Of a stretch of DNA of 64,000 bases, positions 8,186-27,315 are shown in pieces (the first letter of the stretch is position 1; the number at the start of each line of letters is the position of its first letter). The stretch is from Streptomyces venezuelae (GTDB taxonomy: Bacteria > Actinomycetota > Actinomycetes > Streptomycetales > Streptomycetaceae). The stretch spans positions 5,642,001 through 5,706,000 of the forward strand of contig NZ_CP029192.1 in NCBI RefSeq assembly GCF_008642315.1, read 5' to 3'. Below the pieces are notes generated by a model that saw only the letters and a list, made by a program, of their open reading frames with translations, searched no databases and was not told the DNA's origin. The translations under genes and the position numbers were made by a program.

Positions 8186-8401
8186 TCACCTTGCGCCGAT
8201 ACCGGACGCGATGAAGAGGGACCAGGTCTCGCTGCGCATGGCGAGGGCAGGACCATCGGGCCCTCGCTTGGAGTCCCGGACGTAGACGGTCTCAAGGGTG
8301 CGGGCGCACTCGACGCATTCACCGCCCGCGTTATTGCTGTATGAGGAGGTGAACCAGACGAGGTCGGCTGGGAGGTACGGGGTGGTGTCGCCGGTGCTCA
8401 T
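8186..8401 (-). CDS. DUF397 domain protein
   Basis: The product is 71 aa. It has the DUF397 hallmarks: W-F-T-S-S-Y-S-N-N near the N-terminus, G-G-E-C-V-E-C-A, V-Y-V-R-D-S-K near the middle, and a C-terminal W-x-x-F. The ATG overlaps the TGA of the upstream DUF5753 reading frame (ATGA), so the two are translationally coupled. In Streptomyces, DUF397 proteins travel with XRE/DUF5753 regulators and act as small partners, often toxin-like or developmental. Here the partner regulator is frameshifted. Confidence 0.92.
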   Translation of the reverse strand: MSTGDTTPYLPADLVWFTSSYSNNAGGECVECARTLETVYVRDSKRGPDGPALAMRSETWSLFIASGIGAR

Positions 8402-9245
8402 CGCGTGTATTCCTTCAGGATCGATTGGATCAGCTGGGATGACTGTAGGGGGCTCAATGCGACCGCGCGCAGGTCGTCGAAGGCGCGGGTGTACTGGCGC
8501 ACATGATGCTCCCCCTCCAGGTAAACCGCATCCGTGATGCCATCGCGGTAAACGATGTCGGGATCCTCTGGATCTGGAAAGCCCAGCATGGTGAAGGGGC
8601 CGGTCATCGGGTAGATGCCGGAGCCAAAGGGGAGGATCTGCACGGTGACCGAGGGCAACCTCATGTCGTCCACCAGGTGGTCCAACTGCATGCGCATCAA
8701 GGAACGTTCGCCGATGATATTCCGCAGTGCTGCCTCATGGATGACGAACCAGGCGTCCGGTGCGTCCGTGTTCCTCAGGAGGCTCTGGCGCTCCAGGCGC
8801 ACCTGAACTGCCCGCGCGACGTTCTCCTCCGAGATCCCATGACTGCAGGTGTACATCTCGCGAACGTATTCAGGGATCTGCAGAAGGCCCGGGATCATCT
8901 CAACCTGGTACTGGCGGAAGGAGGAGGCTTCCTGCTCAAGGCCGATGTAGATGTTGAACCACTCGGGGATTCCTCCGGCGTGCTGCTGCCACCAGCCTTC
9001 GTCCGAGCTTGCTTGGCAAGTGCCTTGAGGAACTCCCTTACCTCGTCACTGGTTTCGTAGAAACGACACAGTGCGTCAACGTCGGAGGTCTGGACGCGGC
9101 CGTGACCGGTCTCCATGCGGTTCACCTTGGATCCGCTCCAGTCGAGGGCGGCCCCAACCTGAGCGCATGTCACTCCATTTGACTCGCGTAGCTTCTTCAA
9201 CTCGATGGATAGCCGGCGACGCCGCGCCGTTGGGGACCCTGCCAT
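8398..9245 (-). pseudogene. XRE-family regulator with DUF5753 domain, frameshifted
   Basis: The ATG at 9245 has GGAGG 8 nt upstream. The first frame encodes an XRE HTH (LKKLRESNGVTCAQVGAAL; SKVNRMETGHG) up to AKQARTKAGG, then degenerates to an S/P-rich tail ending at 8895. Between about 8900 and 8994 another frame encodes the expected family linker (WWQQHAGGIPEWFN, then FRQYQVEMIPGLLQ), and the DUF5753 domain continues in that frame to 8398. The shift lies near 8989-8996, exactly where the family has AG-x-WW. Loss of 4 nt from a CTGG direct repeat would explain it. Two partial products could still be made from 9245 and 8898. Confidence 0.85.
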
Positions 9246-9456
9246 TCCGGCACCTCCTCGTTAGCCCGCCACAGTCTTCATGGGGAGAAGCATGCTTGCC
9301 AATCACTCCATCGCGTGATTCTCTCCGTGCACATTGCATCTCGGGATGTGTGCAAGCCACTCTGTGAGGCACGCAGACGCGCTGCCGATCGTGCAACAAG
9401 CCCAGTGACGAGGCCGGTTGCGGTGCTGTGAGCGCGTGATCCTCAACGGAGAGGAG

Positions 9457-10140
9457 ATGTACGTGATCCAGGGAAATTGCATGCAGCGCAAGCCGTGGGA
9501 GCTCGCCTTCCTCGCAGAGCCGGAGGAAGTGGCGGCGTTGCGTCGGCTGCTCCGCCTGCATCTGGGAGTTTGGGGGCTGCACGCACTGGTCGATGCAGCG
9601 CAGCTGTGCGTGACCGAGTTGGTGACCAATGTGGTCACACACGTGGGTATCGGTACACCGACCCGTCTGGCAGTGGCCATGAACGATGCCTACCTGCGCA
9701 TCGAGGTTCATGACCCGGACGCTAAGGCCCTGCCAACCCTTCTTTCGGGCACGCAAAGGATGCCGCTGCTCGGAGAGGCGGAGACAGGACGCGGGCTGGC
9801 CTTGGTAGATGCGGTGGCGGATCGGTGGGGTGTCCAGCTACGGGCAGACGGAAAAGTCACCTGGTGTGAGCTGAGGGCGAACCTGAGCTCGCCGTACGGA
9901 CACACGGGTGGACCGCGCGTGACGCGTGCCGAGGGCATCCTCGGTCTGTATGGATGGGCGGCGAGGGAGCATCCCGAACGAGTCGAAGAGGCACACCTGT
10001 TGTCGGCCTTGGCAGGCCGGACGCCGGCGATCGAAGTGATCGCCGACATCCTTCATTGGCTGCACGCCCACGGGCACGACCCGGATGACGCCCTCGTTTG
10101 CGCGCAGACCCGCTTTGAGGCCGAGATCGAGGTCGCGTGA
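9457..10140 (+). CDS. ATP-binding (HATPase_c) anti-sigma/regulatory kinase-like protein
   Basis: The product is about 227 aa. The start is ATG 9457 or GTG 9463, both behind GGAGAGGAG (9448-9456); a longer TTG start at 9418 is less likely. The HATPase_c fold of RsbW-like Streptomyces proteins is visible: N-box LCVTELVTNVVTHVG, then VHDPDAKALP, and GRGLALVDAVADRWG. A C-terminal extension of about 80 residues (LHWLHAHGHDPDD) is unusual. Such proteins lie beside XRE/DUF5753-DUF397 genes and bind partner sigma or anti-sigma factors, though many are orphans. It is divergent from the frameshifted regulator. Confidence 0.85.
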   Translation: MYVIQGNCMQRKPWELAFLAEPEEVAALRRLLRLHLGVWGLHALVDAAQLCVTELVTNVVTHVGIGTPTRLAVAMNDAYLRIEVHDPDAKALPTLLSGTQRMPLLGEAETGRGLALVDAVADRWGVQLRADGKVTWCELRANLSSPYGHTGGPRVTRAEGILGLYGWAAREHPERVEEAHLLSALAGRTPAIEVIADILHWLHAHGHDPDDALVCAQTRFEAEIEVA

Positions 10141-10180: not shown

Positions 10181-13100
10181 TTAAGAGGGCGCGACCTTGG
10201 AGTAGGTGAAGACATCGGCTGGGAGCTCGTACTGGAGCTCCCACTCGATGGCCATCGGCTTACTGCCCTTGTGGGTTCGGTACGTCGCAGGACCCAAGAA
10301 CATCCACGGCTGTGACTTGCCGATGTCGGTGTCCTTGTAGCGGCGCATGAACAGGAGAACGTGGCTGCCGCGCTCTGCATGTTGCTGATACCGAAGCCCA
10401 GTAGGTGAGTGCTCAGACGTGGTGCTCTGTGACTCCCAGTGGAAGATCTTCGGGCTGAGTGCGTAGTCCTTGTAGCGGACCGTCGGGGAGAAGTCCTTCT
10501 CGTTCTTCTCCAGCGTGATCAGCAGGGTGTCCGACTCGTGCTCAGGCGCCCAAACCACCCCCTGAGCGAAGGCGCCGGGCATCTGCCCGCCGAGCTTCGC
10601 GATGCCGAGGGCTGCAAGCACCTCGGATCGGTTGTAGGCACTGTGGATCTTCAACGGCAGATCTGCGTGCGGTCCTTCTGGACTGATCGGAAGGTGGTCA
10701 GCCATGCCGATCACGTACTCAATGACCTGGCTGAGTTCGCTTCGGAAAGCGCTTTGGCTGCGCAAGGAATTGAGCCCGTCACTGTAGCTGGAGAAGCCAC
10801 CGGCCTTATCCCACAGGTTGAAGAACAACATCCGTGCGTAACCTTGTTCGCGCGGGCTCAAATCGGCGTAGTGGGGGGCATCGTCGGCGAGCAGTCGAAG
10901 GTACGTCTGCGCGCGCTCCGGGTCGTCTACGTGCAGGAAGGAGTGGACGCGCTTGAGTAGATCCTCCTCTCCGGGCTGCGGGGCTTCGTCGAGGAGGCCA
11001 GCACGGCGGAGGACTGTCGACCACGAATTGCTGTTCTTGTACAGCTCCTTGATTTCGCGGCGACTCTCCTTGAGGTACTTTTTTAACTCCGGTGCCGCAT
11101 AGTCCCTGGCCTCCCTGGCGAGGATCTGAATGTTCGCCTTGATCTGAGTGCGAATGTTCTCGATCACAAGGTCCTTCGACTTTCCCTCCAGAATGATCTG
11201 GCAGCCGGAAGGTAGCTGAGGAAAGTCGTGCTCCGCATGCTCCAGAAGGCGATTACGGGAGAGGTTGGTTAGGGCGCGGAACTGCTCCTCGAACCGGAAC
11301 TCTTTGCGGTGCTGGCCAATGAAGTCGAGAACGGTGAGAACCGGCTTCGTTTCCGTGCGGCGCAGTCCACGCCCCAGCTGTTGGAGGAACACTGTGGCGC
11401 TATTGGTGGGGCGCAACAGGAGCAGCGCATCGACGTCAGGGATGTCTAGCCCCTCATTGAAAAGATCCACTGAGAAGATCACTTGAATCTCGCCCTTGCG
11501 GAGCTGGTCAAGCGCAGCCTTGCGATCCTCGGTACGTGACTCGCTGTCGAGGGCAACAGCCTGGAACCCCGCCTCGCGGAATGTCTGCGCCATGAAATGC
11601 GCGTGCTTTCTGTTGACGCAGAAGCCGAGGGCGCGCATCGAGGATGGGTCGGATACCTTGTCTTTCACCTGCTTGATGACGATGCGGGCCCGGGCGTTAT
11701 CTCCGGTGTAGAGGTTCCCGAGTTGGTTCACGTCGTAAGTGCCAGACGACCAGTTGAGCTGGGTTAGGTCGGTACCGTCGGGCACCCCGAAGTAGTGGAA
11801 GGGGCACAGGAGATCATTCTCAAGTGCTTCCCATAGGCGCATCTCAGCGGCAATGCGCCCATCGAAATATAGGTCCTGCACATTGCGGCCGTCCGCCCTC
11901 TCGGGCGTCGCGGTAAGGCCGAGTAGCTGGCCCGGCTTGAAGTGCTTGATGATTCGTTCATACGTGTCTGCTGCCGCGTGGTGGAACTCATCAATGACGA
12001 TTACGTCGAATTGATCAGGGGTGAGCTCCTCCAGGCGGTCGGCCTTGAGTGACTGAACGCTAGCGAAGACATGCTTCCAGTCGCTGGGCTGCTCACCGCT
12101 AAAGAGGAGTTCACCGAAGGAAGCGTCGTCCAGCACCTCGCGATATGTGCGCAGTGACTGTCGTAGGATCTCCTGGCGGTGTGCGACGAACAGGAGGCGA
12201 GGGAGCTTGCCGTCCGCCTTATTGCGTAGGTTTCGGTAGTCGATGGCGGCCATGACGGTCTTGCCGGTCCCGGTGGCAGCGACTAGAAGGTTTTCGTGTC
12301 TTCCTCTCAACTCCCGCTCGATTTCCAGGCGTTCAAGCATGTCCTGCTGGTGGGGATAGGGGCGCACTTCAAGACCAGACAGGTTGATCTGCAAGTCCTC
12401 GCCGCGTCCGGTTCCACCTGCTTGGCGTAGGGCAATATCGAGGCGCGGGCCGTCGCGGTCGGGGACGTAGGTTTCGAAGGCGATGTCGTTCCAGTACGCA
12501 TCGAAGGTCGCTTCGAACTTGTTCAGCACGGCCGGCGTGGCGATCGCTGATAGGCGTACATTCCACTCCAGCCCGTCTAGTAGCGCGGCCTTGGAGAGGT
12601 TTGAGCTGCCTACGTAGGCCGTGTCGAAGCCGGAGTTGCGCCTGAAGAGCCAGGCCTTCGCGTGTAGACGTGTCGAGCGGATCTCATAATTGACCTTTAC
12701 TTCGGCGCCGAAGTCCCGGACGAGACGGTCGAGCGCAGTGCGGTCGGTGGCGCCGATGTACGTCGTCGTGATCACGCGGATTGGAACCCCACGCTCGGCA
12801 GCGGCCCGCAAGGAGTCTTCAAGGACGCGGATGCCGTACCACTTCACGAAGGCGCAGAGGAGGTCGATGCGGTCAGCGGTTGCTAGCTCGGCCCGAAGCT
12901 CTGCTCCGAGGCTGGGATCTTCAGGGGAGTTGGTGATGAGCGCCGTCTCGGAGAGCGGAGTCAGCGGGCGGATGCTGTACACGCCTGCGGCTTCTCGCTC
13001 GGCGAGGGCAAGGAGTTGGCGCGGGCCATCAGTGATGAGACCGGCAGCCGACGTGGTGTCCACGTCTGGTGCGACCGACTCCAAGGTCTCCAAAAGCTGA

Positions 13101-13324
13101 TTAGCCGCGGCGACTCGCTTGCCGTGCGGAAGTTGGCTGAGTCGGTGCTCGATGGCCGTACTGAGATAGCGAGCGAGCACATGGGGCGAGGACTCTTCGC
13201 TGACCTCGGCGTCGATGGCCTTCCAACCTGCGGCTTCCAGACGATCGAGGTCGCTTCGAAGACCTAAGGTCACGACCTTCTCGTACACCCCTGCTGATTG
13301 CTCGCTGCGTTGCGGCTCCGCCAC
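10181..13324 (-). CDS. PLD-nuclease / SF2 helicase / DUF3427 fusion protein
   Basis: The product is about 1047 aa from GTG 13324, with AGAGGAG 5 nt upstream. A GTG at 13366 would add 14 residues. An N-terminal region is followed by a PLD-like nuclease domain with one H-x-K motif (RLHAKAWLF, about 221) and GSSNLS. The SF2 helicase core has Walker A ATGTGKT (about 350), DEFHH (about 445), GLTATPERADG and QLGRGLRR. The last 350 residues match DUF3427. The architecture is found in genomic and defence islands and probably translocates on and cleaves nucleic acid. It is divergent, 126 bp away, from an SRA-like nuclease gene, and its codon use is AT-richer than flanking genes. Confidence 0.88.
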   Translation of the reverse strand: MAEPQRSEQSAGVYEKVVTLGLRSDLDRLEAAGWKAIDAEVSEESSPHVLARYLSTAIEHRLSQLPHGKRVAAANQLLETLESVAPDVDTTSAAGLITDGPRQLLALAEREAAGVYSIRPLTPLSETALITNSPEDPSLGAELRAELATADRIDLLCAFVKWYGIRVLEDSLRAAAERGVPIRVITTTYIGATDRTALDRLVRDFGAEVKVNYEIRSTRLHAKAWLFRRNSGFDTAYVGSSNLSKAALLDGLEWNVRLSAIATPAVLNKFEATFDAYWNDIAFETYVPDRDGPRLDIALRQAGGTGRGEDLQINLSGLEVRPYPHQQDMLERLEIERELRGRHENLLVAATGTGKTVMAAIDYRNLRNKADGKLPRLLFVAHRQEILRQSLRTYREVLDDASFGELLFSGEQPSDWKHVFASVQSLKADRLEELTPDQFDVIVIDEFHHAAADTYERIIKHFKPGQLLGLTATPERADGRNVQDLYFDGRIAAEMRLWEALENDLLCPFHYFGVPDGTDLTQLNWSSGTYDVNQLGNLYTGDNARARIVIKQVKDKVSDPSSMRALGFCVNRKHAHFMAQTFREAGFQAVALDSESRTEDRKAALDQLRKGEIQVIFSVDLFNEGLDIPDVDALLLLRPTNSATVFLQQLGRGLRRTETKPVLTVLDFIGQHRKEFRFEEQFRALTNLSRNRLLEHAEHDFPQLPSGCQIILEGKSKDLVIENIRTQIKANIQILAREARDYAAPELKKYLKESRREIKELYKNSNSWSTVLRRAGLLDEAPQPGEEDLLKRVHSFLHVDDPERAQTYLRLLADDAPHYADLSPREQGYARMLFFNLWDKAGGFSSYSDGLNSLRSQSAFRSELSQVIEYVIGMADHLPISPEGPHADLPLKIHSAYNRSEVLAALGIAKLGGQMPGAFAQGVVWAPEHESDTLLITLEKNEKDFSPTVRYKDYALSPKIFHWESQSTTSEHSPTGLRYQQHAERGSHVLLFMRRYKDTDIGKSQPWMFLGPATYRTHKGSKPMAIEWELQYELPADVFTYSKVAPS

Positions 13325-13438
13325 GGCGACTCCTCTGGTCTCAGACGGGAACGGTGTGCTCAGCACAAGTCATAACAGGATCTTCCGTGAGTGCTGGCTG
13401 GCATGAGGGAGGGACGATCCCTTGTCAGTGGCGACTTG

Positions 13439-13444
13439 TATCGT
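13439..13444 (+). promoter_or_regulatory. Predicted -10 element of the nuclease gene (leaderless)
   Basis: TATCGT fits the TANNNT -10 pattern and ends exactly 6 nt before the ATG at 13451. No Shine-Dalgarno sequence is seen, so a leaderless transcript is plausible. No clear -35 element is visible. Confidence 0.4.
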
Positions 13445-13450
13445 CCGAAC

Positions 13451-14413
13451 ATGACCGAATGGACGATCAATCCTGGCGATGTTGTTAGCCGTGCTGACCT
13501 CAAGTCGAGGTACGGCGGGGGCATTCAGGGAGGAATCCTCTCCTCTCGGGACAATGAGCACGTCCGTCTGTTCTCTGACGATGGCAAGGCGGCAGAGAAC
13601 GGCTACCGGGATGGATGGCTGGCAGAAGAAGACGAGCGGGGAGCGGTCTTCGAGTACACGGGTCAAGGGCGACTGGGGAACCAGACTCTCGGCGGGAACA
13701 ACGGCACCGTGGCCAACCATGTTGGAAGAGGTAAGAGGCTGCACCTCTTTGTTGCCGATGGGAAGAGGGCGGGCAGCGGCGCTGTTTGGCAGCGGTATGT
13801 AGGAGAGTTCGCCCTCGATGAGGTCGAGCCCTTCACCTTTCGGAGGGCGAAGGATGCCGAGGGCGAAATGAGGGAAGTAGTTGTCTTCAGGCTGCGCCCG
13901 CTCGAAGAGCATGAGCATCGGAAAGAGGACCGAATAGTCCCTTCTCCCAAGACGGACGTTCGCCGCTTCAGCGCCTCACAGACGGAGAGTTCTCTCGCGG
14001 CGACGGAGAAGCATGCGAGTGCGGAGGGCGAGCGCGCAGCGTCCCCGGCCGGTGTGGCTGTGCGTCGGGAGTCTGACCTGCGTACGGCGTACGAGTCGTT
14101 CCTCATCGCTCAGAACCACAGTGTTTTTCGGCACCGGATACGGATAAGGGGGTACTCCGCGGCCTTCTGGACGGATCTCTACGACAGCACTGAAAACGTC
14201 CTGTACGAGGCAAAGGGGTCGTCGACACGCGGGGCAATAAGGGAAGCAATTGGGCAACTGTTTGACTATCGCCGACACATAGAAGAGAGCGACGCGAAAC
14301 TTGCTGTCTTGCTCCCTGAGGCTCCTAGTGGCGACCTCAGGGATCTCCTCGCTGTAGTGGGGATCTCGCTGGCCTATCGGGAAGATGGCCAGTTCATTCG
14401 CGAGATGTTCTAA
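13451..14413 (+). CDS. SRA-like / PD-(D/E)XK endonuclease, probable modification-dependent restriction enzyme
   Basis: The product is 320 aa from ATG 13451. Residues about 10-152 resemble the SRA-like module of ScoMcrA-type enzymes: YGGGIQGGI, GYRDGW, EYTGQGRLGNQT, RLHLFV, RYVGEF and REVVVFRLRP. After a linker, residues about 205-320 form a PD-(D/E)XK nuclease: an alpha-helix with Glu, then D242/D245, E253-A-K255, and the Q269-xxx-Y273 helix typical of RecB/Cas4-like nucleases. The inferred role is reading modified DNA and cutting it, that is, type IV restriction. No methyltransferase is nearby. It is divergent from the PLD-helicase-DUF3427 gene and AT-rich compared with the genome. Confidence 0.75.
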   Translation: MTEWTINPGDVVSRADLKSRYGGGIQGGILSSRDNEHVRLFSDDGKAAENGYRDGWLAEEDERGAVFEYTGQGRLGNQTLGGNNGTVANHVGRGKRLHLFVADGKRAGSGAVWQRYVGEFALDEVEPFTFRRAKDAEGEMREVVVFRLRPLEEHEHRKEDRIVPSPKTDVRRFSASQTESSLAATEKHASAEGERAASPAGVAVRRESDLRTAYESFLIAQNHSVFRHRIRIRGYSAAFWTDLYDSTENVLYEAKGSSTRGAIREAIGQLFDYRRHIEESDAKLAVLLPEAPSGDLRDLLAVVGISLAYREDGQFIREMF

Positions 14414-14444: not shown

Positions 14445-15488
14445 TTAAGCCGGATCTGTCGCGGCCCCGTGACATGACGAGTAGGTCTGCCCCGACCCAC
14501 ACCAACAAGCCCCATCCCCCTCCGGCGGCCAAGAAACCGCCCGCCCCCGTGCCGCCAGCGTCGTCGCGTACTGGGGGAGGAGTGAGGGGTCCTCCGGGGA
14601 GGACGCCTCCGAGGCCGCGAACGCCTCGTAGGACGGGACCGTGCCGGTGACGATGCCCAGGTTCGGCGTGCCGGAGGCGGAGAGTTCGCGGAGCGAGGAC
14701 TCTATGGTCGACAGGTGCGCCTCGTGGGACGGGTACTCCGAGGTCAGGGCCGGGTACGCCGTCAGGAGTTCCGTCAGTTCAGGGGCGGGCCAGTGGAGGA
14801 CCGCCACCGGGAAGGGGCGGGACAGCGCCTGCCTGTAGGAGCCCAACTCCGCCTGGATGCGGGCGATTTCCGCGCGCAGCTCCGCCGGGTTCTCCGAGCC
14901 CAGCGACCAGACCCGCTTCGGGTCGTGCAGTTCGTCCAGCGGGACCGCGGAGGAGGAGACCTGGTCCGCCAGCGCGTCCCAGTCGTCGTGGTCCGCGCCC
15001 AGGAGGCGGCGTACGCGGTGGCGGCCGAAGAGGATCGGGTGGGTGGAGTAAGGGGGCTCCGCCGCGGCGGGAATCAAAAGCGTCGCCGCCTCCGTGAACG
15101 CCGCGTGCGCCTGCTCCAGCTCGTCGTGGGATTCGAGCGACTCCGCCACGATCACCCAGGGCGCCGGGTCACGCGGCGCGGCCGCGCGGACGCCGTCGAT
15201 GATCGCCCTCGCCTCCGCCTCGTGCCCGTACTCCCACAGGTTCGACGCCTTCAGGGCGCGGATGAGGAGCGGGGAGGAGGGCGGGTGCGGGGCCGAAGGG
15301 GAGAGGAGGTTGTCGTAGAGAGTTGTTGCGCGGTCTCGGGCGCCGGCCAGTTCCAGGTGGGCCGCGGCCTGGAGGAGGAGCTGTTCGGCGTCCTCCGGGT
15401 ACAGGTCGGCCGTGCGTTCCAGGCGCGCGGCTTCGGCGATGTGGTCGACGTCGACGTCAGCGGCAGCAGCAGGCTTCTCGGGGCGCAT
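14445..15488 (-). CDS. SEC-C motif protein with helical (TPR-like) repeats
   Basis: The product is 347 aa from ATG 15488; a GTG at 15497 is possible. The N-terminal half is helical and TPR-like (ARLERTADLYPEDAEQLLLQ; AARDPAPWV-type segments). The extreme C-terminus is a SEC-C zinc motif, CWCGSGQTYSSCHG, as found at the end of SecA and in many stand-alone proteins that bind zinc and possibly ribosomes. The function is unknown. It converges with the SRA-like nuclease gene with 31 bp between stops and marks the return to typical high GC. Confidence 0.85.
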   Translation of the reverse strand: MRPEKPAAAADVDVDHIAEAARLERTADLYPEDAEQLLLQAAAHLELAGARDRATTLYDNLLSPSAPHPPSSPLLIRALKASNLWEYGHEAEARAIIDGVRAAAPRDPAPWVIVAESLESHDELEQAHAAFTEAATLLIPAAAEPPYSTHPILFGRHRVRRLLGADHDDWDALADQVSSSAVPLDELHDPKRVWSLGSENPAELRAEIARIQAELGSYRQALSRPFPVAVLHWPAPELTELLTAYPALTSEYPSHEAHLSTIESSLRELSASGTPNLGIVTGTVPSYEAFAASEASSPEDPSLLPQYATTLAARGRAVSWPPEGDGACWCGSGQTYSSCHGAATDPA

Positions 15489-26442: not shown

Positions 26443-27315
26443 TCACGGGTCCGGGTAGGTGCCGGCGAAGTTCTCGACGTTCCTGGCAGGGGTGATCAGT
26501 TCGGCGGGTTGGAGGGTGTCGTCCGCCAGCTTTTCGAAAAGGTTCCCGATTCTGCGTTCCTCACCCTCGTCGACGACGACGATCCCGCAGTCCGGGTCGA
26601 TGAAGAAGTAACTGCCGGTGCGCGTGGAGTTCCTGTACACCCGCAGGGGCACGCCGCGCCGCCGTGCGGCCTCCTCGCACTCGCTCACGACGTCCTCGAA
26701 CTCCTCGTCGCCGAGGGCGAGCCAGTCCCTGTTGTCCGCGCCGTAGTTGGTCTCGGACATCTGGTAGACCTTCCAGACGTCCGGCAGGGACGCGTCCTCG
26801 ATCAGGTCGAGGACCTTCGGGGCGCCCGCCACGTTGAGGCGGGTGACGACGGTGCCCAGCTTCACGCGCACGTGCGCGTGGTCCTCGCGGACCGCACCGA
26901 GCAGACGCAGCACCCGGTCGCGGTGCGGCGCGGGGCTGCCGGTGCGCAGGAGCCCGTGCTCCTCCCGGTCCGCGGACTCCAGGGGCAGGGCGATCCAGGA
27001 GAGGTGGGGCAGGACGCGGTCCATGGCCTTCCGGGGCGCGAGTCCGTTGGTGCTGAGGACGACGCGGGGGGTGGGCCGCCCGTCGTCGAAGGGCTTGCGC
27101 AGCGCCCCTACGAGGTCGGGCAGGTAGGGGAGCAGAGTCGGTTCACCACCGGAGATGACGACACCCTGCACCCCGCCGTCCCGCAGGACGTCGACCACGT
27201 TCCGAGCTGTCTCCCATGACATGGAAGGGACCTCGTGACGAGGTCCGAAACAGAAGGGGCAGCTGAGATTGCAGCGGCCGATGGGGCGTAGGTCCACGAA
27301 TGCGGGCAGCTGCAT
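26443..27315 (-). CDS. Radical SAM enzyme with viperin-like features
   Basis: The product is 290 aa. The cluster motif C15-xxx-C19-xx-C22 lies in [11 protein letters not shown], and SGGEP is at 55-59. Further segments line up by eye with viperins: [11 protein letters not shown] (viperin has F-K-I-N-S-V-I-N-R-F-N), WKVYQM (viperin W-K-V-F-Q), GDEEFE and [15 protein letters not shown]. The Asn of K-I-N is Gly here, and the viperin C-terminal tail is absent, so the substrate may differ from CTP. It is co-directional with a NUDIX gene 10 bp downstream. No Shine-Dalgarno sequence is present; a leaderless -10 precedes the ATG. Confidence 0.8.

What the first reader, a model, noticed from the sequence alone, without database searches (positions are those of the whole stretch)
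10181..14413. Divergent PLD-helicase-DUF3427 and SRA-like/PD-(D/E)XK pair as a candidate modification-dependent restriction system
Seen: a 1047-aa protein with one H-x-K PLD motif, an SF2 helicase core and a DUF3427-type C-terminus is divergent, 126 bp away, from a 320-aa protein. The latter has a ScoMcrA-like SRA region and a D...E-A-K nuclease with a Q-xxx-Y helix. Known: SRA domains read modified cytosines, and SF2 helicases and PLD nucleases occur in restriction systems such as type IV and Mokosh. Inferred: the two act together on modified invading DNA. I do not recognise this exact pairing as a named system.
Basis: partly seen in the sequence, partly recalled or inferred. Interest (0 to 1): 0.75.

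Follow-up and report, generated by a model that had tools for sequence, protein, structure and literature searches.

The report
Two modified-DNA restriction enzymes side by side
A Streptomyces chromosome carries, head to head, a known type of enzyme that destroys chemically marked foreign DNA and a second small protein that looks like a marked-DNA cutter; in many relatives the small one has lost its cutting residues yet is kept beside the big one, hinting that it may serve there as a reader.

Summary

The pairing recurs: 18 of 87 Streptomyces helicase loci have this partner; 7 have an MrcB_N nuclease and 10 an SRA-HNH nuclease instead, none two. But none of 35 helicase loci from other genera has any of the three, and the site is a hotspot that also holds the latter two alone. 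A required joint system is not shown.

Unexpected: beside the helicase, 22 of 34 distinct SRA proteins lost the D/E-x-K triad while keeping conserved SRA residues and purifying selection; away from it, 1 of 86 did. Only two losses in paired groups underlie this, so it is suggestive. In the window both enzymes look intact.

Verdict: a known enzyme with an optional second modification-dependent nuclease; "reader without blade" adaptors are the testable novelty.

The parts
10181..13366 (-). SauUSI-type ATP-dependent type IV restriction enzyme (1061 aa; 1047 aa from GTG 13324): PLD nuclease, SF2 motor, coupler, SRA-type reader
   Evidence: PADLOC mREase_IV PDLC03659, 1694 bits; SauUSI 7clg, E 1.1e-81 over residues 157-690
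12491..12820 (-). PLDc_2 nuclease domain (residues 183-292) with the single HAK motif
   Evidence: HAK kept in every helicase in which the motif is readable (103 of 108; 5 gaps or truncated)
11360..12367 (-). SF2 motor: ResIII (residues 334-490) and Helicase_C (575-669)
   Evidence: Walker A, DEFH and motif VI conserved in nearly all helicases that cover them
10193..11140 (-). Coupler and SRA-type target-recognition domain (DUF3427)
13325..13450 (.). 126-bp divergent intergenic region (using the inner start codons)
13451..14413 (+). 320-aa SRA-PD-(D/E)XK protein (its homologues carry PF26348, named ScoMcrA-like SRA)
13451..13927 (+). SRA domain (residues 1-159), modified-base reader by fold
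13949..14401 (+). PD-(D/E)XK nuclease domain (residues 167-317): D242, E253-A-K255 (14207-14215), Q269-xxx-Y273
14445..15488 (-). SEC-C protein, boundary marker of the type IV hotspot (not a part of the enzyme pair)
   Evidence: SEC-C; found at 71 of 87 helicase loci
9436..10140 (+). HATPase_c protein, boundary marker on the other side (not a part of the enzyme pair)
   Evidence: found at 52 of 87 helicase loci

Best explanation
[quoted passage not shown] Enzyme 1 is a SauUSI-type enzyme: its C-terminal SRA-fold domain recognises a modified cytosine, the SF2 motor uses ATP to move on or remodel the DNA, and two PLD domains from a dimer form one active site that cuts (mechanism inferred from SauUSI; architecture shown here). 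Enzyme 2 is a small SRA-PD-(D/E)XK nuclease that flips out a modified base and cuts nearby without ATP (inferred from its folds, by analogy with MspJI and ScoMcrA). Together they would widen the range of modified invading DNA that is destroyed. There it most likely works as a modified-DNA-binding accessory of the SauUSI-type enzyme, or at least no longer needs its own blade because the partner cuts (inferred).
For: Helicase: PADLOC mREase_IV 1694 bits; SauUSI by sequence; C-terminus models as SauUSI coupler plus SRA. SauUSI needs ATP and cuts at S-5mC-NGS (passages of PMC7913695; section 20 of PMC3874153). Its presumed Streptomyces counterpart ScoA3I (Sco2863) restricts m5C DNA in vivo (Table 1 of PMC3874153, seen as a passage). 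Partner: SRA and PD-(D/E)XK folds. Recurrence: 18 of 87 loci, in five separate groups of the partner's tree with different gene orders. Reader kept, blade lost: 22 of 34 adjacent against 1 of 86 lone copies (1 of 72 when only lone copies with at least 4 kb on both sides are counted); Y52, Y69, T70, G71 and N84 in 22 of 22 degenerate copies and D54 in 21 of 22; median dN/dS 0.12-0.16 in their SRA domain; PLD HAK intact in all 19 helicases with a degenerate partner where it can be read. Three degenerate copies from genomes not used before also lie beside a helicase.
Against: No experiment. The helicase stands without any of the three partner families in 52 of 87 Streptomyces loci and in 35 of 35 loci fetched from other genera. 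The partner is lone in 86 of 120 copies. Shared hotspot residence can explain adjacency: 13 of 16 lone MrcB_N nucleases and the 4 lone SRA-HNH genes that I fetched sit at the same site without the helicase. Loss of the triad needs only three changes on the tree, and the paired sign test is not significant (median p 0.5). Paired groups hold 21% of the tree's length, so the chance of at least two of three losses falling there is 0.12. Three of the five paired groups, the window's included, kept the triad. The helicase tree and the partner type are not congruent (in one search the nearest helicase to L063 is that of L067, which has another partner type).
Confidence: 0.7

Rival explanations
1. Pure island effect: two (or more) independent stand-alone modification-dependent nucleases collect at one permissive chromosomal site and never interact. 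Triad loss in two groups is drift after functional redundancy.
For: 82 of 87 helicase loci carry a site marker; 13 of 16 lone MrcB_N nucleases and 4 of the 4 lone SRA-HNH genes fetched sit at the same site. No partner in 35 non-Streptomyces loci. Partner types are exchanged on the helicase tree.
Against: Lone SRA-PD-(D/E)XK genes are not at this site (1 of 86 with a marker), so this family reaches it almost only together with the helicase. Degenerate copies stay under purifying selection with conserved SRA residues. No locus holds two partner types (0 seen, 4.3 expected; nominal p 0.005, but 0.03, 0.20 and 0.38 after collapsing helicases at 90, 85 and 80% identity).
Confidence: 0.45
2. Obligate two-component system: helicase and SRA-nuclease are both needed to destroy modified DNA.
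For: Close divergent or co-directional pairing recurs (33-37 bp between ORFs in 11 of 12 copies of the S/A-x-R group, and in L346). Helicase and partner distances correlate within groups (r 0.55, p 0.002; r 0.73, p 0.001; r 0.81, p 0.12; shared ancestry alone can give this).
Against: Most helicases have none of the three partners (52 of 87; [quoted passage not shown]
Confidence: 0.08
3. The partner is a brake or guard: by binding modified sites it shields them, or restrains the ATP-dependent enzyme, and so protects host DNA; this needs no nuclease.
For: Triad loss with reader retention under purifying selection fits a binding-only role.
Against: 85 of 86 lone copies and 12 of 34 paired ones keep the nuclease triad, so a guard role would be derived; helicases without a partner are common.
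Confidence: 0.1
4. Degenerate partners are decaying genes.
For: Two degenerate-partner loci (L257, L263) also have a helicase ORF of about 740 aa without the PLD motif, and L147 has a split helicase; the C-domain of the E-x-T group is the most relaxed (median dN/dS 0.21-0.31).
Against: Long open frames in both groups; SRA-domain median dN/dS 0.12-0.16, like that of the two lone groups compared (0.10-0.16).
Confidence: 0.1

Closest known systems
SauUSI / ScoA3I (Sco2863) ATP-dependent type IV restriction enzymes
   Same: Single-chain PLD + SF2 + coupler + SRA-type C-terminus
   Different: About 110 aa more before the matched region than in SauUSI; phmmer match to SauUSI restricted to residues 157-690; a second SRA-nuclease gene lies beside it. 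ScoA3I itself was not compared: its sequence was not in a collection that I searched by name
ScoMcrA (SBD-SRA-HNH)
   Same: Same SRA subfamily by fold (best structural match) and by the family label PF26348 of the homologues
   Different: A PD-(D/E)XK instead of an HNH nuclease, and only 320 aa, so phosphorothioate dependence is not implied
MspJI family (SRA-like + PD-(D/E)XK)
   Different: No sequence match among solved structures; nuclease domain matches Can2, VC1899 and Card1 best
SRA-HNH enzymes (TagI, ScoA3IV kind) and MrcB_N nucleases
   Same: Lie beside the helicase in other Streptomyces (10 and 7 of 87 loci)
   Different: Other nuclease (HNH) or other reader (MrcB_N; Pfam)
Mokosh (MkoB)
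   Same: Helicase plus PLD nuclease in a defence context (recalled)
   Different: MkoB matches only the PLD region at 26 bits against 1694 bits for mREase_IV

Membership tests
SauUSI-type type IV enzyme (helicase) | N-terminal PLD nuclease with HxK | tested here: met
   PLDc_2 residues 183-292, 42 bits against cut-off 27; HAK present
SauUSI-type type IV enzyme (helicase) | SF2 ATPase with helicase motifs | tested here: met
   ResIII and Helicase_C; Walker A, DEFH and motif VI
SauUSI-type type IV enzyme (helicase) | Coupler plus SRA-fold target-recognition domain | tested here: met
SauUSI-type type IV enzyme (helicase) | ATP-dependent cleavage of 5mC/5hmC DNA | not testable with these tools
   Biochemistry needed
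MspJI-like SRA-nuclease (partner) | SRA domain followed by PD-(D/E)XK in one chain | tested here: met
MspJI-like SRA-nuclease (partner) | Sequence homology to MspJI | tested here: inconclusive
   No MspJI among phmmer hits to solved structures at E<=1; the whole-chain structural match has rmsd 13.8
MspJI-like SRA-nuclease (partner) | Modified-cytosine-dependent cleavage | not testable with these tools
   Biochemistry needed
ScoMcrA (partner) | SRA of the ScoMcrA type | tested here: met
   5zmm/5zmn rank first; homologues bear PF26348
ScoMcrA (partner) | HNH nuclease domain | tested here: not met
   No HNH family hit; the C-domain models as PD-(D/E)XK
Obligate helicase + SRA-nuclease two-gene system | Genes regularly found together | tested here: not met
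   Adjacent in 18 of 87 Streptomyces helicase loci and 0 of 35 elsewhere; partner lone in 86 of 120 copies
Mokosh | Full-length match to Mokosh proteins | tested here: not met
   MkoB 26 bits over the PLD region only

The most novel reading that the evidence does not exclude
A SauUSI-type enzyme in Streptomyces recruits exchangeable second readers (SRA-PD-(D/E)XK, MrcB_N-PD-(D/E)XK or SRA-HNH proteins), at most one per locus. In two lineages the SRA partner has become a nuclease-dead adaptor that hands modified DNA to the ATP-driven PLD nuclease: a modular type IV restriction complex with a separate specificity subunit.
Probability: 0.25. Interest if true: 0.7.

Novelty: new variant of a known kind. 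Interest (0 to 1): 0.48.

Why it matters
Restriction of methylated DNA is a known barrier to genetic work in Streptomyces, and SauUSI is described as sufficient on its own. If a catalytically dead SRA protein widens or steers the targets of such an enzyme, type IV restriction would gain a separable specificity subunit, directly testable by deleting one small gene. Even if it does not, the locus is a compact map of where Streptomyces keeps and swaps its modified-DNA nucleases, with an SRA-PD-(D/E)XK family of over a thousand members for which I saw no experimental description.

Tried and rejected
Mokosh and BREX-like readings: only weak partial PADLOC matches. An obligate pair: not borne out, because most helicases have no partner. 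A third gene in the 0.7-kb gap of the E-x-T group: no recurrent coding cluster in my gene calls (part of the output was cut). Single-sequence search of the partner against solved structures: no meaningful hit, so folds were used. The first partner labels (6 MrcB_N, 8 SRA-HNH loci) missed three loci because of my simple gene caller; correct this to 7 and 10, and the change counts use the old labels. Absence of doubles among partner types weakens when near-copies are collapsed. The paired sign test for triad loss is not significant. C-x-K members seen (for example P0022) could not be placed beside or away from a helicase: run with P0022, found no match above 63% identity. Loci L347 and L349 (degenerate) have too little flank to judge adjacency. 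L350 and L351 proved to be the same loci as L268 and L253 and are not new evidence. 14 of the 86 lone copies have under 4 kb of flank on one side, so 'lone' is an upper bound. Paper searches for the pairing listed no paper that I saw to describe it; I judged by listings, abstracts and the passages read, the library holds open-licence papers only, and the original S. coelicolor study of Sco2863 was not read.
Full report
What is there. The window is part of a single-contig 8.94-Mb genome, a Streptomyces by its nearest relatives. The minus-strand ORF 10181-13366 (1061 aa) and the plus-strand ORF ending at 14413 (340 aa from GTG 13391, 320 aa from ATG 13451) are as described. The helicase has PLDc_2, ResIII, Helicase_C and DUF3427 above their curated cut-offs. 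PADLOC's mREase_IV model PDLC03659 matches residues 118-1057 with 1694 bits. The best solved relative is 7clg (E 1.1e-81), which titles as the SauUSI structure.

How often are they neighbours? In 295 Streptomyces genomes I took 87 helicase loci: the window, all 84 other matches of at least 1300 bits, and two split genes (G057, G276); shorter partial matches such as G029, G006, G138 and G144 were not fetched. The SRA-PD-(D/E)XK partner lies within 6 kb in 18 of 87, an MrcB_N-PD-(D/E)XK protein in 7, an SRA-HNH protein in 10, none of these in 52, and no locus has two. Without regard to kinship the absence of doubles has p 0.005 (4.3 expected), but 0.03, 0.20 and 0.38 when helicases are collapsed at 90, 85 and 80% identity. 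In a sample of 394 genomes of the class, 55 have the helicase at E<=1e-100, in 27 of 137 genera including Streptomyces. I fetched 35 of the 36 such loci outside Streptomyces; none has any of the three partners in the stretch held, about 6 kb on each side and less at contig ends.

The site. 82 of 87 Streptomyces helicases lie beside a SEC-C protein gene and/or an HATPase gene. The same markers flank 13 of 16 lone MrcB_N nucleases (all that one search found away from a helicase) and 4 of 4 lone SRA-HNH genes fetched (the other lone matches were not fetched), but only 1 of 86 lone SRA-PD-(D/E)XK genes. The site is thus a hotspot where modification-dependent nucleases are swapped, and adjacency alone cannot prove joint action. 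For the window's own partner family, however, presence at the site goes almost wholly with the helicase.

The unexpected pattern. With 34 lone loci from the genus survey and 80 named loci I had 133 copies, 122 non-identical, 120 with a readable motif; two rows (L178 and a second copy in L250) were dropped. Within 6 kb of a helicase 22 of 34 have lost the D/E-x-K triad; elsewhere 1 of 86 (L177, a distant member) has (Fisher p 1.8e-14, which ignores kinship). Of the 86 lone copies 72 have at least 4 kb of flank on both sides. The losses are of two kinds: S/A-x-R (12 copies, same strand, ORF gap 33-37 bp in 11 and overlapping frames in L273) and E-P-T-like (10 copies with T, M, S or A in place of K, 0.6-2.6 kb downstream). 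On a tree built without the motif columns, adjacency changes 6 times and triad state 3 times; there are five paired groups, of which two lost the triad. That is too few events for significance (sign test p 0.5; chance of at least two of three losses on paired branches 0.12). The scan used conserved peptide patterns that fit intact copies better, so it under-samples degenerate ones.

Why the degenerate copies are probably not dead genes. Their SRA domain has a median dN/dS of 0.12-0.16, like the two lone groups compared (0.10-0.16); the C-domain has 0.13 (S/A-x-R) and 0.21-0.31 (E-x-T). Y52, W56, F67, Y69, T70, G71 and N84 are invariant in 22 of 22 and D54 is D in 21 of 22. That Y52, D54, Y69 and T70 correspond to the base pocket of UHRF1 is recalled, not tested. 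The helicases beside them keep the PLD HAK motif in 19 of 19 readable cases; three (L147, L257, L263) are split or truncated. Genomes not used before gave three more degenerate copies beside a helicase (L344; L346 and L348), two degenerate ones that cannot be judged for lack of flank (L347, L349) and, as a counter-example to any rule, a triad-intact copy beside a helicase (L290).

Reading. For the window, the supported statement is two apparently intact modification-dependent nucleases at a type IV hotspot, one of them a SauUSI-family enzyme that should work alone. Joint action is possible, not shown. For the family, the pattern of reader kept and blade lost beside an enzyme that has its own blade is the real lead: it suggests an accessory reader, or a guard, and can be tested by deleting one gene. 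Against a tight complex, partner type and helicase lineage are not congruent.

Known or new. SauUSI-type enzymes, SRA-nuclease fusions and ScoMcrA-type SRA domains are all known kinds (PMC12707154 passages; PMC7461809 passages). I saw no description of this pair or of nuclease-dead partners in seven paper searches of an open-licence library, judged from listings, abstracts and the passages read.

Noticed in passing
L063:4859-5833, L082:9907-10881, L089:10313-11290, L093:10433-11359: A gene of about 310-325 aa, with no Pfam or PADLOC match in the copy tested (L082), follows the S/A-x-R type SRA gene directly, giving a three-gene run with the helicase.
   Followed up: partly
L257:5048-7276 and L263:5128-7353: Helicase ORFs of about 740 aa that lack the PLD motif, beside SRA partners whose nuclease triad is also lost.
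   Followed up: no
window 8398-9245: The HTH and DUF5753 halves of a regulator are two overlapping minus-strand ORFs (116 and 166 aa), whereas relatives at this site are often single ORFs of about 281 aa.
   Followed up: no
window 26446-27315: Protein with a moderate match (81 bits) to PADLOC prokaryotic viperin models; it may be another radical-SAM protein.
   Followed up: no
L182-L192, L194, L197-L201: The same chromosomal site holds MrcB_N nucleases or SRA-HNH nucleases without the helicase: a type IV restriction hotspot of Streptomyces.
   Followed up: partly
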